A DNA stretch of 42,702 nt from Candidatus Aquidulcis sp. (GTDB lineage: Bacteria > Chloroflexota > Anaerolineae > UBA4142), in assembly GCA_020723345.1 (NCBI GenBank), contig DYJA01000003.1, positions 76,972-119,673 on the forward strand, in the 5' to 3' direction. Of the stretch, positions 12,373 to 39,253 are shown one piece after another; the stretch's first letter is position 1; the number at the start of each line of letters is the position of its first letter. Position numbers and translations under genes: made by a program. Below the pieces are notes generated by a model, which did no database searches, was not told where the DNA came from, and was given only the letters and a program-made list of their open reading frames with translations.

Positions 12373-12981
12373 TCAATCGGCATCCTCTCCAATCAACTCC
12401 GCAATTTGCATTTCGTCAATCGGAAGATTGTGCGCTGATTTGAAATTGCTATCGCCGCTGAACCACTCCAACACAACGTCGCGGCAGAGTCGTGTTGGTT
12501 TCGTGGAAAAGAACGCTTGGTATGACGAGTATGGATACTCGCGAAAATCGCTGACGAAACCGTGCTTTTGCGGATTCAGGTGGATGTAGCGAATCAAGTT
12601 GGTGAAATATTCGTCGCGCGTTACGCGAATTCTGCCAAACGGTCGTTGAAACAGATTGCCCGTGCGCCCGTACGCAATATTGATGGATTTGGTGTAACTG
12701 TTGAACAAGTTGGAAAATTGTTGGGAGGGCTCCAGGTACTTTAGACCTGTCAGGTTTCCGGAAACCTGACAGGTCTCACACTCGCGAATCCGCGTCAAGA
12801 GATGGAAATGATTCCGCAACAAACAATACGCAAATGTTTCTGCAATCGGCTCGATGTGCTTGGCGTACAGCGTCAGGAAATAGCCATAGTTGCGCGGCTC
12901 GCGGAAAATGTTTTCGCCGCCATTGCCGCGATTGTAGATGTGATAGTACGCGCCATGGACAAGCGGGATTTGCTTTTGCAT
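12373..12981 (-). CDS. REP-associated tyrosine transposase (RAYT)
   Basis: 202 residues. HUH/Y1 single-strand transposase of the IS200-like RAYT type. N-terminal YYHIYNRGN is the family start, HFH at 58-60 is the metal-binding pair, and the catalytic Tyr is probably Y96 in NSYTKSIN; GNLFQRPFGRIRV and YIHLNPQKHG follow as usual. GGAAG precedes the ATG. A perfect 34-bp REP palindrome lies in frame at 12743-12776 and codes for about residues 69-80 (ETCQVSGNLTGL), between the HFH motif and Tyr. Further REP copies flank the gene on both sides. Whether the enzyme tolerates the insert is unknown; the frame is intact. Confidence 0.9.
   Translation of the reverse strand: MQKQIPLVHGAYYHIYNRGNGGENIFREPRNYGYFLTLYAKHIEPIAETFAYCLLRNHFHLLTRIRECETCQVSGNLTGLKYLEPSQQFSNLFNSYTKSINIAYGRTGNLFQRPFGRIRVTRDEYFTNLIRYIHLNPQKHGFVSDFREYPYSSYQAFFSTKPTRLCRDVVLEWFSGDSNFKSAHNLPIDEMQIAELIGEDAD
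12743..12776. repeat. Perfect 34-bp REP palindrome inside the RAYT gene
   Basis: Arms AGACCTGTCAGGTTTCC and its exact reverse complement, with no spacer. Each arm contains the mini-palindrome ACCTG-T-CAGGT. It adds in-frame codons to the transposase gene. Confidence 0.92.
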
Positions 12982-13034: not shown

Positions 13035-13068
13035 AGACCTGTCAGGTTTTTAGAAACCTGACAGGTCT
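13035..13068. repeat. REP palindrome upstream of the RAYT gene
   Basis: AGACCTGTCAGGTTT and GAAACCTGACAGGTCT around a very short loop; same family as the copy inside the transposase gene and the copy at 39221-39253. Confidence 0.9.
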
Positions 13069-13121: not shown

Positions 13122-13162
13122 TCAGAGTTCCAGAGTCCAGAGGGATCAGAGATCAGAGTCAG
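13122..13162. repeat. CTCTGATC-like words at the TIR-FGE stop
   Basis: Read on the minus strand, the TGA stop of the TIR-FGE gene is the first of about five degenerate words such as CTCTGATC, CTCTGGAC and CTCTGAAC. Single arm only. Confidence 0.7.
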
Positions 13163-14856
13163 GACGCGCCCGCGACGACCCGAAAACCGTCGTACCTGAG
13201 CCCGAAGTTCGGGACGTACCAGCCGCGACACGCCGCGCGGACGTAGTCGGAACCAAAGTCGAACGCGCCGCCGCGCAGCACGCGGGCTTGCCCAGACGCG
13301 GGTCCTTTGGGATTTTCCTTCAGCGAATTCTTGTAGTAGTTCTCGTCGTACCAATCCGCGCACCATTCCCAGACGTTGCCCGCCAGATCTGCAACGCCGT
13401 AGAAACTGTCTCCTTGCGGTGAGTATTTCCCAACAGGCGTTGTATCTCCAATTCCCGATTCAGAAGAGTTGCATCTGGACACGTCGAAATCTTTACCCCA
13501 GGGGTAGATGCGTTTCTCTTTTTTGATGTCGTCCCAACTTGCCGCTTTCTCCCATTCCGCTTCAGTCGGCAAGCGTTTGCCTACCCATTGCGCGTATGCA
13601 GTTGCGTCATCCCAAGAGACATTAACGACAGGATAATTTTCTTTGCCCTGCGGAATTTTTCCGTTTTGCCAATGAGATGGCGGTGAATGTTTTGCGGCAT
13701 CCACGAATTTTTTGTAATCCGCGTTTATCACGGGAAAGCGAGAAATGTAGAACGCGTCAAGGTAAACCGTGTGCGGTGGTTTTTCATCATCACTACCTTC
13801 ATTGCCGCCCATCATAAACTCACCAGCGGGGACAAGCAACAGTTCTCTGCCATCTTTGTCAACTTTTTTGGTCACGCCCGCTTGAACCATTGGCGACCAC
13901 GCGCGCTCGAACAAAGTTTGGGTGCGTTTGTAATTCGGCTTGGCGCGGCGGATTTGCTCAAACAACGGGAACGCCTTTGCCCAATCGTCTATATCCAGCG
14001 CGTCCAGCAATCGCTCGTAAATTTCCGCCAGCGCGATCCAGCGATTCGTCGTCGCCAATTTCGCGCGCGCGTCCAAAAACTGCGGATCGAGTTGCAACAA
14101 TTCTTCCAAGCGCGCGTGCGCGTCCTGCCACGATTCAGCGCGGTCGTCTTTGTCCGCCAGCGCTTGCTTCATCAAATCGTCGGCGGCAAGATAAAGTTGC
14201 AGTTTTTGCAGACGCGCAGGCGCGTCGCGATAATCGGCGATCTTTTCAAAGCGCGCGGCGGCTTCGCGCAAGTTGCCCTCGCCTTGAAGCGCGCGCGCTT
14301 CTTGGTAGAGATCCGCCAATTCATCGCGCGGGAGTGTCGGCGCGCGTGGCGGCGCGGGCGTGGATTTCGGCGGCGCGCTTGCTGTGGGTGTAGCGTGGGT
14401 GGAACGCGCGGGCACTGCGGTAGATGTCGGACGCGCCACCTTGAAACCCTTGCTCAACAACTCTTCCAGCGCGGCATCGTATCGCCCCACAAAATTGATG
14501 TAAAGCACAGGTTTCAGTAAAACCGGCAAATCACAGGGTTCGACGACAAGCGGAATGATCTCCGGACGCCCGCGCACACGCCCTTTCGAGTCGCGTTCGT
14601 TCTTGAGCGTAATCGCCGCGTTGATTTCTTCTTTGCACCAAGGCGAATCGAGCGCAGCAAGCGAAAGAATTGGAACATAGACATCGCACTTTTCCAAGCC
14701 CTCTGAAATGCGCGCCGCGATATTTTCGCCGGGCTGAATCGAGTACGCGTCAAAAAAGCCCTCCAAGCCGTGCTTGCGTAAATCGTCGCACAGCCGCTTG
14801 GCAAAGTCAATGTCTTTCCAAGAATGAGTGATGAAGAATTTGGGTGTCTGTGGCAT
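13159..14856 (-). CDS. TIR-TPR-FGE protein, possible defence effector or diversified receptor
   Basis: 565 residues. N-terminal TIR domain (about 1-140: FFITHSWKDIDFAKRL, then LDSPWCKEEI carrying the Glu that serves as the NAD-cleaving residue in active bacterial TIRs). Middle part (about 165-310) is helical, TPR-like, with YQEARALQGEGNLREAA-type repeats. C-terminal formylglycine-generating-enzyme fold (about 325-565: LVPAGEFMMGG, RLPTEAEWEKAA, GNVWEWCADWY, LRGGAF, GFRVV). The active-site CxxxxC of true FGE enzymes is absent, so the domain probably binds rather than modifies. The tail carries NNY-rich codons like a variable region. GGAGGCGCG precedes the ATG. It is divergent from the nucleotidyltransferase-HEPN gene. 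Role in sensing or immunity is inference. Confidence 0.85.
   Translation of the reverse strand: MPQTPKFFITHSWKDIDFAKRLCDDLRKHGLEGFFDAYSIQPGENIAARISEGLEKCDVYVPILSLAALDSPWCKEEINAAITLKNERDSKGRVRGRPEIIPLVVEPCDLPVLLKPVLYINFVGRYDAALEELLSKGFKVARPTSTAVPARSTHATPTASAPPKSTPAPPRAPTLPRDELADLYQEARALQGEGNLREAAARFEKIADYRDAPARLQKLQLYLAADDLMKQALADKDDRAESWQDAHARLEELLQLDPQFLDARAKLATTNRWIALAEIYERLLDALDIDDWAKAFPLFEQIRRAKPNYKRTQTLFERAWSPMVQAGVTKKVDKDGRELLLVPAGEFMMGGNEGSDDEKPPHTVYLDAFYISRFPVINADYKKFVDAAKHSPPSHWQNGKIPQGKENYPVVNVSWDDATAYAQWVGKRLPTEAEWEKAASWDDIKKEKRIYPWGKDFDVSRCNSSESGIGDTTPVGKYSPQGDSFYGVADLAGNVWEWCADWYDENYYKNSLKENPKGPASGQARVLRGGAFDFGSDYVRAACRGWYVPNFGLRYDGFRVVAGAS
13186..13263 (-). other. Candidate variable region in the FGE tail
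   Basis: Between the conserved LRGGA and GFRVV, most exposed positions use codons ending in C or T (TTC GAC TTT GGT TCC GAC TAC, later TAC GTC, TTC, CTC, TAC GAC). Each can be derived from AAC or AAT by changing only A, the hallmark of adenine mutagenesis by diversity-generating retroelements in FGE/C-lectin tails. No template repeat or reverse transcriptase is in the window, so this is a pattern, not proof. Confidence 0.4.
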
Positions 14857-15697: not shown

Positions 15698-15744
15698 CTT
15701 GCCCACGGCGCGTAATTCGTTTATTCGTTCAAATTCGTTGACAC
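15664..15744. repeat. ACGAATAA-word palindrome at convergent 3' ends
   Basis: Left arm (15664-15697) starts GTGTCAACGAAT and runs through ACGAATAA-like words; right arm (15712-15744) is its inverse and ends ATTCGTTGACAC. The left arm encodes the C-terminus and stop of the plus-strand gene, and the right arm encodes the C-terminus (STNLNE) and stop of the minus-strand FGE gene. Same words recur at 28802-28862. Confidence 0.88.
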
Positions 15745-16494
15745 GCAACGAAACCCCACCGTCGCGTACCCGTTATCCGGCACGATGTAATCGCGGTTCG
15801 CGCAGCGCGCGTAATCCGGCGAAATATCCCACGCGCCGCCGCGCAGCACGCGCCAATCGCCGGACTCGGGACCCGGTGGATTGAAAGTGAAGGGACGCTT
15901 GTAATACTCCGCGTCGTACCAATCCGCGCACCACTCCCACACATTCCCCGCCATGTCAATCACGCCGTACGGACTGTCGCCCAGTTGCGCGTACTGCCGG
16001 ACGGACGTCGTCGCGCGCAAATCCGACATCTTGGTGTTGCAGCGACCTTGATCGAATTCCTGTCCCCAGGGATAACGTCGACCATCTGTGCCGCGCGCGG
16101 CTTTTTCCCACTCTGCTTCGGTTGGCAATCGCTTGCGCGCCCAGCGCGCGTACGCGCTTGCATCGCCCCAGGAAACGAAGACAACTGGATAATTGTCTTT
16201 CTCGCGCGGAAAAGTGCGGTCATCCGGATCCCAATCCGGCGGCGCGGGATGTTCTGGATTCGCGTCGAGGAAGCGTTTGTACTCCGCGTTCGTCACCGGC
16301 GTTTCGTCGATGTAGTACGCGGCGAGATCGACGCGATGCTGGGGCATCTCATCGGCAAACCATTTCAGCCGCCAGCCGTACTCTCGTTGCATTTCGACCG
16401 CGTCGGCGTCGCTCGTGCCCATCAAAAACCAACCCGCCGGAATGAGCATCATTCGCTTGCCGTCTCTGCCGATCTGAATTGGTTCGAATGCCAT
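15721..16494 (-). CDS. FGE-fold (sulfatase-modifying factor-like) protein
   Basis: 257 residues, the whole chain being one FGE domain: MMLIPAGWFLMGTSDAD, VTNAEYKRFLDA, RLPTEAEWEKAARG, GNVWEWCADWYDAEYY, VLRGGAWD, GFRCV. The first active-site Cys after RGG is missing, and only one Cys lies in the segment where a CxxxxC pair is expected, so oxidase activity on sulfatases is doubtful; no sulfatase gene is in the window. ATG at 16494 has GGAG 7 bases upstream. It resembles the C-terminal domain of the TIR protein 2 kb away, so the two may be paralogues. The last residues come from a palindromic word array. Confidence 0.85.
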   Translation of the reverse strand: MAFEPIQIGRDGKRMMLIPAGWFLMGTSDADAVEMQREYGWRLKWFADEMPQHRVDLAAYYIDETPVTNAEYKRFLDANPEHPAPPDWDPDDRTFPREKDNYPVVFVSWGDASAYARWARKRLPTEAEWEKAARGTDGRRYPWGQEFDQGRCNTKMSDLRATTSVRQYAQLGDSPYGVIDMAGNVWEWCADWYDAEYYKRPFTFNPPGPESGDWRVLRGGAWDISPDYARCANRDYIVPDNGYATVGFRCVSTNLNE

Positions 16495-16514
16495 AACGAT
16501 GCTCCTTTGCATAC

Positions 16515-16563
16515 GAGGGCAACCACCCTTCGACTGTGCTCAGGGCGAGCCCGGGATTGCCTC
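16515..16563. repeat. Hairpin with CTTCGACT-GCTCAGG core after thrC
   Basis: Outer arms GAGGGCAA and TTGCCTC; inner part CCCTTCGAC ... GCTCAGGG. It lies between the thrC stop and the FGE start and shares its core with repeats at 6.0, 10.8 and 24.4 kb. Confidence 0.75.
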
Positions 16564-17846
16564 TACGATTTCAGCACGCGGCGCAGCGCGTCCAACGATG
16601 GTTCGATGCGCGTGCCTTGCCCTGCGACCCGCATCGCGCTCTTGATGTCTTTCAAACCGCTGCCGGTGATCAAACACACCATCGTTTCGTCCGATTTCAC
16701 GAGACCTTGCTTGACCGCTTTGACCAACCCCGCGTACGCCGCCGCGCCAGCGGGTTCCGCGAACACCGCTTCCGCGCGCGCTAAATCGCGAATTGCCGCG
16801 AGAATTTCGTCGTCAGTCACAGTGAGGTACGCGCCACCCGTTTCGCGTACCGCGCGCACCGCGCGCACGCCGTCGCGTGGAATGTCCGCGCTGATCGAAT
16901 CCGCAAGCGTCGTCGCGCTGACCGGCGTGATTTTGTCCGTCCCCGCTTTCCACGCATTATAACACGCCGCCGATCCTTCGGCTTGAATGCCCATCAAGCG
17001 CGGCACGCGAAGCGGGTCGATCCAACCGAGCGCGGCGAGATCGCGCAGCCCTTTCCACAATCCGCTGATGATGTTGCCGTCGCCGACGGAAACGAAGATG
17101 CGATCAGGCGCGCGCCAACCCCCACCCCGCCCCTCCCCCGTTCCCACAGGGGAGGGAGACAGTTGTTCGCAAATTTCGATTGACGCGGTTTTCTTGCCTT
17201 CGACCGTGAACGGATTGTACGCGGTGTTGCGGCAGTACCAGCCGAATTCTTTCGACGCGGCGAGGCAGAGATCGAACGCTTGATCGTAATTGCCCTTGAC
17301 GAGCATCACGCGCGATCCGAAGATCAGCAGTTGCGCGATTTTCGCTGGCGGCGCGGTTTCGGGGACGAAGATCACCGTCGGCATTTGCGCGGCGGCGGCG
17401 AGTCCCGCGAGCGCGGCGCCCGCGTTGCCGGTGCTCGCCGTCGTGATGATCTCGACGCCGAGTTCGCGCGCTTTGGCGACGACGAACGCGCTCGCGCGAT
17501 CTTTGAATGACGCGGTCGGATTGCGTCCATCGTCTTTGATGTACAAGTTGCTCAAGCCAAGTTGCGCGCCGATTTTCTGCGCGCGATACAGCGGTGTCCA
17601 GCCGACTTGGAGCGGCGGCGCGAATCGCGAAGCGTGCGCGTCGTCAATCGGCAGCAGATCAGCGTACCGCCAGATCGAAAAATCGCGCGAGTCGGAAATC
17701 TTTCGCGGTGATGTTTTTTTCGCGATTTTCGCGTAATCGAGAATCGTGTCGAGGATGCCATCGTCGCCGTGTTTCGGGCAGACGTACCGCGTCGTCCTGG
17801 GATCGAGTTCGTCGCCGCACAGTGTACATTTGAAATGATAGGTCAT
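16563..17846 (-). CDS. thrC: Threonine synthase
   Basis: 427 residues. Converts O-phosphohomoserine to threonine with PLP. N-terminal zinc-ribbon-like CTLCGDELDP...CPKHG, Schiff-base Lys in NPTASFKDRAS, TASTGNAGAALAG loop, and VSVGDGNIISGLWKG with the phosphate-binding glycines. Between EICEQL and the conserved W..PD.IFVSVGDG there is an extra Gly/Pro-rich segment, SPSPVGTGEGRGGG, encoded by a palindrome rich in CCCTCCCC. This insert is in frame and probably on a surface loop. It is the last gene of the long minus-strand run led by GntR; each gap has a stem-loop. Confidence 0.93.
   Translation of the reverse strand: MTYHFKCTLCGDELDPRTTRYVCPKHGDDGILDTILDYAKIAKKTSPRKISDSRDFSIWRYADLLPIDDAHASRFAPPLQVGWTPLYRAQKIGAQLGLSNLYIKDDGRNPTASFKDRASAFVVAKARELGVEIITTASTGNAGAALAGLAAAAQMPTVIFVPETAPPAKIAQLLIFGSRVMLVKGNYDQAFDLCLAASKEFGWYCRNTAYNPFTVEGKKTASIEICEQLSPSPVGTGEGRGGGWRAPDRIFVSVGDGNIISGLWKGLRDLAALGWIDPLRVPRLMGIQAEGSAACYNAWKAGTDKITPVSATTLADSISADIPRDGVRAVRAVRETGGAYLTVTDDEILAAIRDLARAEAVFAEPAGAAAYAGLVKAVKQGLVKSDETMVCLITGSGLKDIKSAMRVAGQGTRIEPSLDALRRVLKS
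17117..17160. repeat. In-frame CCCTCCCC palindrome within thrC
   Basis: Arms CCCTCCCC (17131-17138) and GGGGAGGG (17149-17156) with a 10-base loop, preceded by a C-rich flank. It codes for the Gly/Pro-rich extra loop of threonine synthase. Confidence 0.75.
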
Positions 17847-17853
17847 AGGAACT

Positions 17854-17946
17854 CCAGTGTCCAGTATTCAGTATTCAGTGTTCAGTGTTCAGTGTTCAGC
17901 ATGTCTGCACTTCACTGGATACTGAAAACTGAATACTGCTTACTGC
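17854..17946. repeat. Stem-loop of CAGTATT/CAGTGTT words between M50 and thrC
   Basis: Left arm holds about six words such as CAGTATT and CAGTGTT; right arm holds the inverse words ACTGGAT, ACTGAAA, ACTGAAT. The TAA stop of the M50 gene lies in the right arm. Same family at 32234-32304. Confidence 0.85.
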
Positions 17947-19016
17947 TTTTCACCAAGTTGTTCCGCTCTCGCAAAATCCAGTTGCGCGTTCGCTTCATCC
18001 CCCAGAGCGCGCCGCGCCGTGCCGCGCCAGAAGAAAAACTCGGGCACGGTTGCATCGCGCAGGATCGCCGCGTCGAATTCGGGAAGCGCTTGTTTCGCGC
18101 CGCGGTGGTGGTAGATGCACAAGCCCAATCCAAAGTGCGCGCGCGCGCCAAGTGCGGGATCGCTGACGCGCGCGAGCGCGGCGCGAAAATGCTTCTCGCC
18201 GTCGGTGTAACGCTTTTGGATCAACCGAATTTGCCCGATGTTGTACAGCGCGCGCGAATTTTGCGGATCGATTTTCAGCGCAGTGCGGTAATCCACCAGC
18301 GCCAGATCGAATTGATTCTGCGACGCGAAAAAGTTGCCGCGCGCAACGATCGGATCGAGCGCGCCGGGTCGCGCGGCAATCGCGTTGTCGAGTTGTTTGA
18401 GATGATCGCGTGCGCCTGCGTACAAACTCACCTCCCAACGCTTGACGAACGCGCTGCGATCAAGCAGCCAGAGCGCGAGGACGAGCGCCGCGTGCGCGAC
18501 GCCGAGCGGAATCGTGAGCAGCCAACTCGTGCCGTAAATCGTCCGCCAATCGCCGTGAAAACCCGCGAGCGTCAACAGCGGATAGCCGACGAGTGCCCAG
18601 CCCAGTTGGATGCGCGCGAGCGCGAGCATCGTGTACTTGATCCATGGTTTGCGCGTGATCGCCAACAGCGCGATTGGAACGAATCCCAAAACAATCGAAA
18701 CGAGATTGCCCGACAGCGAAATCCACCACTTTTGCAAATCCGAGAAATTCCCAACTGGAACGACGTAACCATAGAACAAGGCGTAATGAAATTCGATGAC
18801 CTGTCCGCCGACTTGGAGCGTCGCGAGTGCGTGCCCGAGTTCGTGCAGCAAGACGCCAATCGGAATGAAAACGAAAAACGCGATTTCACTCGCGAGACGG
18901 CGATCAAACGCGGTCAATTCGTCGTCGGTGAACGCGCGCCAATTTTTCGCCAGTGTCCACAGCGCGCGGACGCCGAGAAAGGCATAGAGAAGCGAAAGGA
19001 GGTCGAAGAGTTGCAT
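17940..19016 (-). CDS. M50-like membrane metalloprotease with TPR tail
   Basis: 358 residues. Zinc motif HELGH at residues 58-62 inside a membrane segment (FVFIPIGVLLHELGHALA), followed by several hydrophobic helices up to about residue 205, then a soluble tail of about 150 residues with at least three TPR-type units (RGNFFASQNQFDLALVDYRTALKIDP and following). The second M50 motif (NPxxDG) is reduced to SGNLVSIVLG, so full proteolytic activity is uncertain. ATG at 19016 is taken; the longer open frame starts inside a repeat. GGAGGT-type bases are not directly upstream. It lies between carbamate kinase and threonine synthase; no functional link is evident. Confidence 0.75.
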   Translation of the reverse strand: MQLFDLLSLLYAFLGVRALWTLAKNWRAFTDDELTAFDRRLASEIAFFVFIPIGVLLHELGHALATLQVGGQVIEFHYALFYGYVVPVGNFSDLQKWWISLSGNLVSIVLGFVPIALLAITRKPWIKYTMLALARIQLGWALVGYPLLTLAGFHGDWRTIYGTSWLLTIPLGVAHAALVLALWLLDRSAFVKRWEVSLYAGARDHLKQLDNAIAARPGALDPIVARGNFFASQNQFDLALVDYRTALKIDPQNSRALYNIGQIRLIQKRYTDGEKHFRAALARVSDPALGARAHFGLGLCIYHHRGAKQALPEFDAAILRDATVPEFFFWRGTARRALGDEANAQLDFARAEQLGEKQ

Positions 19017-19024
19017 AAGTTTGG

Positions 19025-19110
19025 AGTGCAATAGTGTGTTAGTGCGATAGTGCGATAGTTTCACTTTTGGGCAACTATCGCACTATCGCACCATTGCACT
19101 ATCGAACTAT
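19025..19110. repeat. Stem-loop of ATAGTGCG words between carbamate kinase and M50
   Basis: Inner 17-bp arms GCGATAGTGCGATAGTT and its exact inverse close a 12-base loop; outer words continue the pairing imperfectly. The last three codons (IVR) and stop of carbamate kinase are read from the right arm. Confidence 0.9.
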
Positions 19111-20085
19111 GTGAGTTCCTGTCTCCCCGCGCAGCGCGCGCCCGATGTTTTCGGGATTCGTGATGATCGCGTGCTTGCCGCCGGCTTCGAGATACCAAAT
19201 GATCGCCTGCATCTTCGGCGCCATCGAACCTTTGGCAAAGTGCGTGCCCTCGGCGAGATATTGTTTCGCATCGGCGAGCGTCATCTTGTCGAGCCATTGC
19301 TGGTTCGGCTTGCCGAAATTGATCGCGACTTTTTCGACCGCCGTCGCGATCAAAAATAGATCGGCGTTGATTTCGCGCGCGAGCAAACTCGACGCGAAAT
19401 CTTTGTCGATCACTGCCGCAGTCCCGCGATATTCGCCGTCGCCAACGTCGATCACGGGGATGCCGCCGCCGCCAACCGTGATGACGATGATCCCTTTTTT
19501 GAGCACCGCTTCGATGGTCGTCTGCTCGACGATTTCCTGCGGCAGCGGCGACGGGACGACGCGCCGCCAACCGCGTCCCGCGTCTTCGACGACACTCCAG
19601 CCCATTTCGTTCTTGCGCCGCGTCGCCTCGATTTGATCCATAAATCCGCCGATGGGTTTACTCGGATTCTTGAACGCCGGATCATTTTGATCGACCAGAA
19701 CCTGGGTGATGATCGTCGCGCAGCGCTTTTTGACGCCGCGATGATACAACTCGTTTTGCAGCGCCTGCTGCAATTCGTAACCGATCGCGCCTTGCGTGTC
19801 CGCGCCGCACACGTCGAGCGGAACTTCGTGCATCCCTTCAACCTTCGCCGCGATTTCGGATCGGCGCAAAACGAAACCGACTTGCGGACCGTTGCCGTGT
19901 CCGATCGCGACATCCCAACCCTGTTCCACCATGTCCGCGATATGATGCGCCGTCTCGCGCAACGATTCTTCCTGATCTTCGACCGATTGATGCTGCGGAT
20001 CTTTGATCAGCGAATTCCCGCCAATCGCGACGACAGCGATCTTACGCTTTGCGATTTTCTTTACGATTTTCTTTTTTGTTGCCAT
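19099..20085 (-). CDS. arcC: Carbamate kinase
   Basis: 328 residues. Makes ATP from carbamoyl phosphate and ADP, yielding carbamate (then ammonia and CO2). VVAIGGNSLIK and GHGNGPQVGF are the nucleotide/carbamate-binding marks; ITVGGGGIPVI and AVIDKDFASSLLA complete the amino acid kinase fold. A lysine-rich N-terminal extension of about 14 residues (MATKKKIVKKIAKRK) is unusual. GGAG lies 8 bases before the ATG. It follows a knotted carbamoyltransferase and an aspartate-type carbamoyltransferase on the same strand, as in arginine- or ureide-fermenting clusters, and probably drains their carbamoyl phosphate to ATP. Confidence 0.93.
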   Translation of the reverse strand: MATKKKIVKKIAKRKIAVVAIGGNSLIKDPQHQSVEDQEESLRETAHHIADMVEQGWDVAIGHGNGPQVGFVLRRSEIAAKVEGMHEVPLDVCGADTQGAIGYELQQALQNELYHRGVKKRCATIITQVLVDQNDPAFKNPSKPIGGFMDQIEATRRKNEMGWSVVEDAGRGWRRVVPSPLPQEIVEQTTIEAVLKKGIIVITVGGGGIPVIDVGDGEYRGTAAVIDKDFASSLLAREINADLFLIATAVEKVAINFGKPNQQWLDKMTLADAKQYLAEGTHFAKGSMAPKMQAIIWYLEAGGKHAIITNPENIGRALRGETGTHIVR

Positions 20086-20102
20086 TGTCTAATCTCCTGG
20101 TC

Positions 20103-20159
20103 TGGTAGTCGGATAGTCGGGTAGTCAGACTAACCGACTACTCGACTACGTGACTATCA
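20103..20159. repeat. Stem-loop of TAGTCGGG words between carbamoyltransferase and arcC
   Basis: Three TAGTCGG-like words face three GACTACG-like words around an 8-base loop. It begins right after the TGA stop of the carbamoyltransferase gene. Same word family as 5492-5586. Confidence 0.85.
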
Positions 20160-21146: not shown

Positions 21147-21172
21147 ATTCGTTGTCTCCTTGTTGATGAGTA

Positions 21173-21250
21173 CAATAGTGCGTTAGTGCAATAGTGCGAT
21201 AGTTGGCTGTCAATGAAGTCAACTATTGCACCACTGCACTATTGCACTAT
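21173..21250. repeat. Stem-loop of ATAGTGCA words between four-helix gene and carbamoyltransferase
   Basis: Arms CAATAGTGC...GCGATAGTTG (21173-21205) and CAACTATTGC...GCACTAT (21220-21250) with a 14-base loop. The TAG stop of the four-helix gene is in the right arm. Confidence 0.88.
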
Positions 21251-21618
21251 CCCTTTCGATTGCGTAGATACGCGATCAAGCCATTGATGAGACGCTTGGC
21301 TTCGCTAGCGAGGTCATAGGCGTGCTGACGTTGTTCCTCGGTGATGTACTTGCGATCAAGCGCTTGATAGAGTTCGGATTGGACTTCGCTGGCGGAGCGG
21401 CGCGCCATTTTCAGAAATCGAATGAACTCGGGGCCAGAGCCAGAGTCAAATCCTTCGGCAATGTTGTGCATCACCGAACTTGCCGCGCCGCGAATTTGAT
21501 CGCGCAGGTAGAAATCGCAGGCGAACTTGGGGCTGAACGCCAAATCGTCAATCACATTCGTCAGTTGCCGCGCTTTCTGCCACGCCAACAAATCCTCGAA
21601 TCGTTGAATCTTCGGCAT
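21247..21618 (-). CDS. Four-helix-bundle protein (23S rRNA intervening-sequence type)
   Basis: 123 residues. RFEDLLAWQKARQL near the start, YLRDQIRGAASSVMHNIAEGF in the middle (residues about 38-58) and EFIRFLKMARRSASEVQSEL are the shared marks of the small helical family first seen within 23S rRNA intervening sequences and now found as free genes in many bacteria. Function unknown. GGAGGTGCG precedes the ATG. It stands alone between two carbamoyltransferase genes, with arrays of the same ATAGTGC word on both sides, which suggests it arrived as a cassette. Confidence 0.88.
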   Translation of the reverse strand: MPKIQRFEDLLAWQKARQLTNVIDDLAFSPKFACDFYLRDQIRGAASSVMHNIAEGFDSGSGPEFIRFLKMARRSASEVQSELYQALDRKYITEEQRQHAYDLASEAKRLINGLIAYLRNRKG

Positions 21619-21629
21619 CGCACCTCCAA

Positions 21630-21678
21630 CTATCGCACGATTGCACTATCGCACTATTGCACTCTTGAACTATTCAAC
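21630..21678. repeat. ATAGTGCG word array between aspartate-type carbamoyltransferase and four-helix gene
   Basis: About five words (ACTATCGC, ACTATCGC, ACTATTGC and variants) in one orientation, without a full second arm. It includes the TAG stop of the carbamoyltransferase gene. Confidence 0.82.
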
Positions 21679-22650
21679 TGCCCCAAGCACGAGCGCAATC
21701 AACGCCATCCGCATCACGACGCCGTTGAATGCTTCTTGCCAGTAGCGCGACCAGCGCGTAATGTCAACGTCGGCGGGAATTTCGTCCATGCGCGGAAGCG
21801 AGTGCAACAAGATCGCGTCGCTCTTCGCTTTCGACATCAACAATTCGCGCGTGATCCTGTAATTCGCGGGCGTAAGCGATTTGTCCTTGCTCGCCTCCTG
21901 CCGCGCTTGCGTGTAATCGGGCTGCACGACTGGCTCGACCAAAATCACATCGGCTTCCGCAATCGCTTGCTCGACGTGCTCCGCTTCGCGAAAATTCAGC
22001 GCGTACTTTTTGAAATCGGCTTTGTATTCCTCGGGCATCCGCATGTCGGGCGAATTGGGAAAGAGCGCGTTCGCGCCGGGCGAGACAAACGTGATCGGGC
22101 AATCGAATTGCGACAGCGCGTAACCGAGCGAGTGCATCGTCCGCATTCGCATGTCGCCGACCGCGAGCCACCGCAATCCATCGATGCGACCTTTTTCGCG
22201 CAGCACGGTGTAGAGATCGGTGAGAATCTGGGTCGGATGTTCGCCCCAACCGTCGCCGCCGTTGATAATCGGCACACTCGACCACTGCGCGGCTTCGTGC
22301 GGCGCGCCTTTTTGGAAATGGCGCATCACGATCACGTCGCCGTAAAATTCGAGCATCTTGACGGTATCCTTGATACTTTCCTGATACCAATCGCCCGCGC
22401 GCGTCATTTTGAAATCGGCAAAGCCGGTGACGTGCCCGCCGAGACGATGCATCGCGGCTTCGTGCGCGAGGCGCGTGCGCGTGCTCGGCTGATAGAACGC
22501 GGCGACGAGCGTCTTGTCTTTCAACAGATCGCTGTTGCGGCGTTCGCGCGCGATCGGCTCCAGCCGTTCCGCAATTTCGAACACGCGAAAAAATTCGTTG
22601 CGTTCGAATTCTTTGAGCGACAAAATGTCGCGTCCTGCAAAACTACGCAT
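21670..22650 (-). CDS. pyrB: Aspartate-type carbamoyltransferase catalytic chain
   Basis: 326 residues. PSTRTR (residues 55-60) binds carbamoyl phosphate, HPTQILTDLYT is the shared carbamoyltransferase motif, and HSLPRMDEIPADVD with a C-terminal GVVMRMAL resembles aspartate carbamoyltransferase. Several insertions relative to PyrB (TQARQEASKDKSLTPANY) make the assignment to pyrimidine synthesis uncertain. No pyrI, pyrC or other pyr gene is nearby; instead carbamate kinase and a second carbamoyltransferase follow. A ureide-catabolic role is therefore possible. GGAGG lies ahead of the ATG. It is the first structural gene after gntR. Confidence 0.82.
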   Translation of the reverse strand: MRSFAGRDILSLKEFERNEFFRVFEIAERLEPIARERRNSDLLKDKTLVAAFYQPSTRTRLAHEAAMHRLGGHVTGFADFKMTRAGDWYQESIKDTVKMLEFYGDVIVMRHFQKGAPHEAAQWSSVPIINGGDGWGEHPTQILTDLYTVLREKGRIDGLRWLAVGDMRMRTMHSLGYALSQFDCPITFVSPGANALFPNSPDMRMPEEYKADFKKYALNFREAEHVEQAIAEADVILVEPVVQPDYTQARQEASKDKSLTPANYRITRELLMSKAKSDAILLHSLPRMDEIPADVDITRWSRYWQEAFNGVVMRMALIALVLGAVE

Positions 22651-26325: not shown

Positions 26326-26345
26326 TTTTCCTCCTTTGAGCCGTT

Positions 26346-26367
26346 GGACAAATTTGCAAATTTGTCC
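26346..26367. repeat. Perfect palindrome GGACAAATTT-GC-AAATTTGTCC
   Basis: Two 10-bp arms and a 2-base centre upstream of the SIMPL gene. An interrupted version of the same element is at 6028-6073. Confidence 0.88.
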
Positions 26368-26430
26368 TACCCGTACCATACCAGAGGAATGTGTCACGCG
26401 TGTGGCAATGGGGAAATAGTTTGGGGACAA

Positions 26431-39220: not shown

Positions 39221-39253
39221 AGACCTGTCAGGCGTTGGTCACCTGACAGGTCT
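39221..39253. repeat. REP copy between the binding protein and araB
   Basis: AGACCTGTCAGG and ACCTGACAGGTCT arms with an 8-base loop; the same REP as around the RAYT gene 26 kb away. Confidence 0.85.

What the first reader, a model, noticed from the sequence alone, without database searches (positions are those of the whole stretch)
12743..12776. A perfect REP palindrome sits in frame inside the RAYT transposase gene
The 34-bp palindrome has the same sequence as REP copies flanking the gene and at 39.2 kb. It adds about 11 residues between the HFH motif and the catalytic Tyr and keeps the frame. A RAYT carrying its own substrate in its gene could be self-targeting or self-limiting.
Basis: partly seen in the sequence, partly recalled or inferred. 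Interest (0 to 1): 0.75.

Follow-up and report, generated by a model that had tools for sequence, protein, structure and literature searches.

The report
Transposase gene carrying its own palindrome
A bacterial enzyme gene thought to spread short DNA palindromes carries one of those palindromes inside its own coding sequence, and distant relatives carry different palindromes in the same place that match the palindromes beside their own genes, which suggests the enzyme and its DNA partner evolve together.

Summary
A perfect 34-bp palindrome (12743-12776) lies in frame in a 202-aa RAYT/TnpA-REP gene (12981-12373, minus), in a disordered loop between the HFH motif and the catalytic tyrosine. 'Same sequence' needs correcting: only the upstream copy (13035-13068) has the same 15-nt arms; the downstream site is a half copy and the 39.2-kb copy is eroded.

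It is not a one-off. At least 46 of 102 distinct relatives from several phyla carry a palindrome at the same site, with different sequences, phases and peptides. The internal palindrome matches those beside the same gene (27/37 loci, against 9.8% across loci). Sister genes at 51-60% amino-acid identity, with four-fold sites saturated, keep 30/30 identical arm bases, and nearly all differences are mirrored in both arms.

In-frame REPs in RAYT genes are already published for TnpA-REP subclass 2.4 (PMC6006769). This lineage fails that subclass's other defining features (F for W, YIHxNP, SS extension, no GTAG foot), so I call it a new variant of a known kind. Most likely the tolerant loop is repeatedly seeded and homogenised by the gene's own palindrome family. 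Self-limitation is possible but unshown; other genes here carry in-frame copies too.

The parts
12373..12981 (-). RAYT / TnpA-REP (Y1 HUH transposase), 202 aa; NHFH 57-60, catalytic Tyr132 in YIHLNP, SS 152-153
   Evidence: NF047646 E=3e-14 below its cut-off; best fold match 4er8 E=7e-9
12743..12776 (.). Perfect 34-bp palindrome in frame in the RAYT loop between the HFH strand and the next helix
13035..13068 (.). Upstream palindrome with the same 15-nt arms and a different centre, midpoint about 70 bp before the RAYT start codon
12354..12370 (.). Half copy (one arm, GAC type) a few bases after the RAYT stop codon
39221..39253 (.). Distant copy with intact outer arms and an eroded centre

Best explanation
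The locus is a REPtron: a RAYT gene with its cognate palindrome family. The family here is a perfect, footless palindrome made of two inverted mini-hairpins, ACCYNNNRGGT. One copy sits in frame in the protein's tolerant, disordered loop between the HUH strand (beta3) and helix alpha-C. The most likely mechanism is this: the RAYT acts on single-stranded palindromes and preferentially seeds copies next to and inside its own gene. Insertions survive only where they keep the frame, and the element lacks stops in two of its three frames. As the RAYT changes specificity, the internal copy is replaced or homogenised together with the flanking and dispersed copies. Selection acts on the DNA element or not at all, rather than on the encoded peptide.

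Shown here: position, recurrence, cognate matching, mirrored changes and predicted loop disorder. Inferred: RAYT-driven copying, cis preference, and turnover as the cause of homogenisation.
For: Recurrence at one site: 46 of 102 distinct homologues have a strong palindrome (score 12 or more) in the HUH-Y loop, and 50 have one (score 10 or more) anywhere in the domain CDS, against 5 of 2040 codon shuffles. Ten of the remaining 56 keep a single arm in the loop, against 0.7% expected.

Cognate matching: internal and flanking palindromes share a 10-mer in 27 of 37 loci, against 131 of 1332 cross-locus comparisons. Genome counts rank the matching genomes highest: GTC type G000 30 and G008 14, others at most 5; GAC type G108 96 and G066 28; CCCGAAGGG type G003 101. 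Within G000, other Y1 genes are flanked by unrelated palindromes.

Association: of 149 genomes, those with a close RAYT have a median of 39 palindromes against 0, p=4e-10, and p=1e-7 outside the window's own order.

Homogenisation: arms are 30/30 identical between RAYTs at 51-60% aa identity whose four-fold sites are 24-29% identical; 14 differences are mirrored and 1 is not.

Tolerance: pLDDT is about 59 in the loop against 93 overall; in-frame copies occur in other genes.

Architecture: palindromes cluster about 31-40 bp before the start codon and 10-29 bp after the stop; 21 of 92 loci have upstream, internal and downstream copies.
Against: No cleavage, binding or insertion was measured. Cognate matching is not exclusive: G000 also has 25 GAC-type and 15 CCCGAAGGG-type copies, and G013 has 43 CCCGAAGGG copies although its RAYT carries another palindrome. 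G001, whose RAYT carries CCCGAAGGG, has only 8. Thirteen genomes without a detected RAYT have 10 or more palindromes. About half the homologues have no clear internal palindrome, yet their loops are almost as long. Selection to keep the internal copy would also give mirrored changes. The pairs are not all independent.
Confidence: 0.6

Rival explanations
1. Autoregulation: the internal palindrome, with the one near the start codon, is kept by selection because the RAYT binds or nicks its own gene, or its mRNA hairpin slows translation, so the enzyme limits itself.
For: Very strong hairpin in the mRNA (-25.5 kcal/mol). The upstream copy often sits at -31 to -40 from the start codon. Arms stay perfect while the rest of the gene saturates.
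Against: Similar in-frame palindromes sit in unrelated genes of the same genome. About half of the homologues lack a clear internal copy, and the tree needs about 19 gains or losses. The best structural relative, 4er8, is solved bound to a REP DNA hairpin, which gives no support for RNA binding.
Confidence: 0.18
2. Portable substrate: carrying the cognate palindrome inside the gene is selected because, after horizontal transfer, the enzyme arrives with its own substrate and can found a new palindrome population.
For: The patchy spread over Chloroflexota, Bacteroidota, Geobacteraceae and Armatimonadota suggests transfer. Sister RAYTs carry cognate copies in each host.
Against: Flanking copies already provide that linkage: 16 loci have flanking copies on both sides and no internal copy. 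No transfer event was followed directly.
Confidence: 0.13
3. The segment is an ordinary protein insert whose palindromic DNA is a side effect of coding.
For: The frame is kept, and non-palindromic loops of similar length exist.
Against: Peptide and phase differ between homologues while the DNA palindrome recurs. Codon shuffles almost never give it. The same DNA occurs dispersed across the genome.
Confidence: 0.02

Closest known systems
TnpA-REP subclass 2.4 (RAYT group 4), Quentin et al. 2018, PMC6006769
   Different: Subclass 2.4 has WQ and YIxNNP, no core extension, and canonical long REPs or REPs with a GT[AG]G double foot. Here it is F in place of W, YIHxNP and a conserved SS extension, and no foot was found around 29 copies.
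TnpA-REP subclass 2.1.2 (RAYT group 1), PMC6006769
   Same: The motifs NH[YF]H, FQ and Y[IV]HLNP and a serine motif after the core fit the window protein.
   Different: That subclass was reported without REP-like sequences nearby and with additional C-terminal, often HTH-like, domains; the window protein has palindromes and no Pfam hit.
Intragenic REPs and Rickettsia palindromic elements (RPE), Di Nocera et al. 2013, PMC3733652
   Same: Short palindromic elements sit inside unrelated genes and add residues to their proteins.
   Different: In the passages read, that paper does not describe a matching internal copy at one conserved site of the transposase gene itself.
REPIN / REP-RAYT system of Pseudomonas, PMC3116915
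   Same: A RAYT with a dispersed short palindromic family; two inverted hairpin units resemble a miniature REPIN (from title and abstract, and own knowledge).
   Different: The elements here are about 33-34 bp, symmetric and without a GTAG foot.

Membership tests
RAYT / TnpA-REP (Y1 HUH REP-associated transposase) | HUH motif and a single catalytic Tyr in Y---NP | tested here: met
   NHFH 57-60; Tyr132 in YIHLNP, invariant in the alignment
RAYT / TnpA-REP (Y1 HUH REP-associated transposase) | TnpA-REP fold | tested here: met
   AlphaFold model pLDDT 93; best match 4er8 E=7e-9, then IS200/IS605 TnpA
RAYT / TnpA-REP (Y1 HUH REP-associated transposase) | Gene flanked by palindromes repeated in the genome | tested here: met
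RAYT / TnpA-REP (Y1 HUH REP-associated transposase) | Cleaves or recombines its single-stranded palindrome | not testable with these tools
   needs biochemistry
TnpA-REP subclass 2.4 | In-frame REP between HUH and Y | tested here: met
TnpA-REP subclass 2.4 | WQ motif and YIxNNP motif | tested here: not met
   F at the W position in 82 of 88 aligned homologues; YIHxNP, window YIHLNP
TnpA-REP subclass 2.4 | No extension after the core domain | tested here: not met
   Conserved SS plus a further conserved C-terminal part
TnpA-REP subclass 2.4 | REPs with GT[AG]G foot or double foot | tested here: not met
   No conserved tetranucleotide around 29 own-genome copies; ends are RRACC..GGTYY
TnpA-REP subclass 2.1.2 | NH[YF]H, FQ, Y[IV]HLNP motifs | tested here: met
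   Window protein fits; across the family the fourth residue of the Y motif varies
TnpA-REP subclass 2.1.2 | No REP-like sequences nearby | tested here: not met
TnpA-REP subclass 2.1.2 | C-terminal HTH / Bac_DnaA_C domain | tested here: inconclusive
   No Pfam hit, but the C-terminus is helical
TnpA-REP subclass 2.6 | 21-residue insertion between alphaC and beta4 | tested here: inconclusive
   The alignment to 4er8 shows only a one-residue gap there, but covers 69 positions

The most novel reading that the evidence does not exclude
A RAYT lineage without the GTAG-reading residues has adopted footless, fully symmetric palindromes and keeps a cognate copy inside its own reading frame as a working part of the system: a self-carried reference copy that is rewritten in step with the enzyme's changing specificity and may also control its expression.
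Probability: 0.2. Interest if true: 0.8.

Novelty: new variant of a known kind. Interest (0 to 1): 0.52.

Why it matters
How RAYTs recognise REPs and how enzyme and repeat stay matched is open. Here each gene records, inside its own coding sequence, which palindrome it is paired with. The pairing can therefore be read from one gene, and specificity changes between sister enzymes can be tested directly. The lineage also seems to work without the GTAG foot and with the neighbouring W94 position changed to F, so it offers a natural comparison for REP recognition. It shows too that repeats can rewrite protein loops in frame.

Tried and rejected
Chance or coding side effect: rejected by shuffles and by changing phase and peptide.

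'Other RAYT paralogues in this genome carry the palindrome at the same place': first suggested by weak tblastn hits. On inspection those were the palindrome itself in other ORFs or on the wrong strand; rejected.

Subclass 2.4 membership: rejected on three features.

A conserved flanking foot such as GTAG: none seen.

The first genome pattern search used a wrong spacer and found nothing; repeated correctly.

A text search for the palindrome sequence in papers found nothing.

Insertion length and target duplication from empty sites (PyrF-PyrE, methyltransferase): not resolvable, because the same loops in relatives are filled by other repeats or vary in length.

Full report
WHAT IS THERE. The window is G000:C102:76972-119673 of a 6.34-Mb genome in 132 contigs. 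By the best database relatives it appears to belong to the Chloroflexota (inference). ORF 12981..12373 (-) encodes 202 aa. It has no Pfam hit, a sub-threshold hit to NCBIfam NF047646 'REP-associated tyrosine transposase', and its family profile hits the TnpA-REP structure 4er8. The AlphaFold model has pLDDT 93, and 4er8 is the best Foldseek match, followed by IS200/IS605 TnpA. The palindrome AGACCTGTCAGGTTTCCGGAAACCTGACAGGTCT at 12743-12776 is perfect and in frame. Its peptide falls in the only poorly predicted stretch of the core (residues 71-80, mean pLDDT 59), between the strand with HFH and the next helix. Three further sites exist: 13035-13068 (same arms, other centre), a half copy just after the stop codon, and an eroded copy at 39221-39253. 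So 'the same sequence' is true of the arms of one copy only.

GENOME-WIDE FAMILY. A strict pattern finds 34 copies of this palindrome in the genome and 0 with the reversed control. A generic pattern for the whole class (ACCYNNNRGGTYY-loop-mirror) finds 132 copies, again 0 in the control. Each arm is itself a small hairpin (ACCTG-T-CAGGT), so the element can be read as two inverted mini-REPs. No conserved flanking base was seen around 29 copies; lengths are 34 bp (17) and 33 bp (12). Copies sit in frame inside other real genes: a methyltransferase, an FAD-linked oxidase, a DNA methylase, a PMT-type transferase and PyrF-PyrE. In the PyrF-PyrE linker a sister species has a different palindrome of the same class, and other relatives have unrelated repeats. 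This is the key control against reading too much into the RAYT insert: loops in this lineage are filled by repeats in general.

SAME SITE, DIFFERENT PALINDROMES, ACROSS PHYLA. 110 homologous loci were collected, 102 of them distinct. Fifty have a palindrome of score 10 or more in the domain CDS, against 5 of 2040 codon shuffles. Forty-six have one of score 12 or more in the HUH-Y loop. Ten of the 56 others keep one arm there, against 0.7% expected. The sequences differ widely, and phases 0, 1 and 2 all occur, so the peptide is not what is conserved.

COGNATE MATCHING. Internal and nearby external palindromes share a 10-mer in 27 of 37 loci, against 131 of 1332 cross-locus comparisons. In 18 genomes, the GTC type is most frequent in the two genomes whose RAYT carries it (30, 14; others at most 5). 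The GAC type is most frequent in its two carriers (96, 28), although G000 also has 25. The CCCGAAGGG type is most frequent in carrier G003 (101), but G013 (43, not a carrier) exceeds carrier G001 (8). Pairing is strong but not exclusive. Inside G000, the other Y1 genes have their own unrelated palindromes, one of them a GTAG double-foot type. Genomes with a close RAYT have a median of 39 palindromes against 0 in the others (p=4e-10; p=1e-7 outside the window's order); shared ancestry inflates these p values, and 13 genomes with no detected RAYT still have 10 or more palindromes.

HOMOGENISATION. On a tree built without the loop, presence or absence needs 19 changes in 86 rows. Between sister RAYTs the arms can be identical (30/30 bases) even at 51-60% amino-acid identity, where four-fold sites are only 24-29% identical. 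Differences between arms are mirrored 14 times and unmirrored once, in partly overlapping pairs. Either turnover with other copies or selection on the palindrome explains this; the data do not separate them.

ARCHITECTURE. Palindrome midpoints cluster 31-40 bp before the start codon and 10-29 bp after the stop. Of 92 loci with enough flank, 21 have upstream, internal and downstream copies, 16 only the two flanking copies, and 22 none.

LITERATURE. Quentin et al. 2018 (PMC6006769) report that subclass 2.4 TnpA-REP genes have REP insertions within the gene, in frame, generally between HuH and Y, in a peripheral region, and call this unique to that subclass. Di Nocera et al. 2013 (PMC3733652) describe intragenic REPs in many genes. 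So the basic phenomenon is known. This lineage differs from 2.4: F in place of the W next to the GTAG-reading residues, YIHxNP, a conserved SS extension, and no GTAG foot. By motifs it is nearest to 2.1.2, which was reported to lack REPs. I did not have the published profiles, so placement is by motif only. I found no paper describing the cognate matching and mirrored changes of the internal copy, but only open-licence papers were searchable, and the supplementary files, where figure S10 of PMC6006769 lies, were not readable here.

VERDICT. Real, widespread, partly known; a new variant. The most economical explanation is repeated seeding and homogenisation of a tolerant loop by the gene's own palindrome family. 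A regulatory or 'portable substrate' role remains possible and testable.

Noticed in passing
window 17103-17162 (ORF 17846..16563, -): The threonine-synthase-like ORF has an odd loop, LSPSPVGTGEGRGGGW, encoded by a strong G/C-rich hairpin (CTCCCTCCCC..GGGGGAGGGG). It looks like a second repeat class inserted in frame, and the PyrF-PyrE linker of L163 holds similar DNA.
   Followed up: partly
L162-L170 (PyrF-PyrE) and L177-L187 (methyltransferase): Homologous loops in related genomes are filled by different repeat classes: palindromes, 7-10-bp-period repeats and G/C-rich hairpins. Repeats seem to rewrite tolerant loops in this lineage generally.
   Followed up: partly
L002, L003, L004, L005 (same genome): Other Y1 transposase hits in this genome have their own, unrelated palindromes nearby; L002's is GTAGGACAAATTTATAAATTTGTCCTAC (GTAG at both feet), with a relative at window 26343-26370.
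   Followed up: partly
window 14856..13159 and 16512..15721 (-): A TIR + FGE-sulfatase fusion lies next to a second ORF of the FGE type (114-nt repeat, 73% identical). Their ends recall variable-protein ends of diversity-generating retroelements; no reverse transcriptase was looked for.
   Followed up: no
window 19008-19118 and 21160-21681; also 17856-17945, 4248-4310, 5480-5530, 20085-20149: Short-period (7-8 bp) repeat arrays in inverted pairs, e.g. ACTATCGC/GCGATAGT, that can form large hairpins.
   Followed up: no
G146, G030 and 11 other genomes: Many palindromes of this class although no related RAYT was found; another mover, a lost RAYT or an assembly gap could explain it.
   Followed up: no
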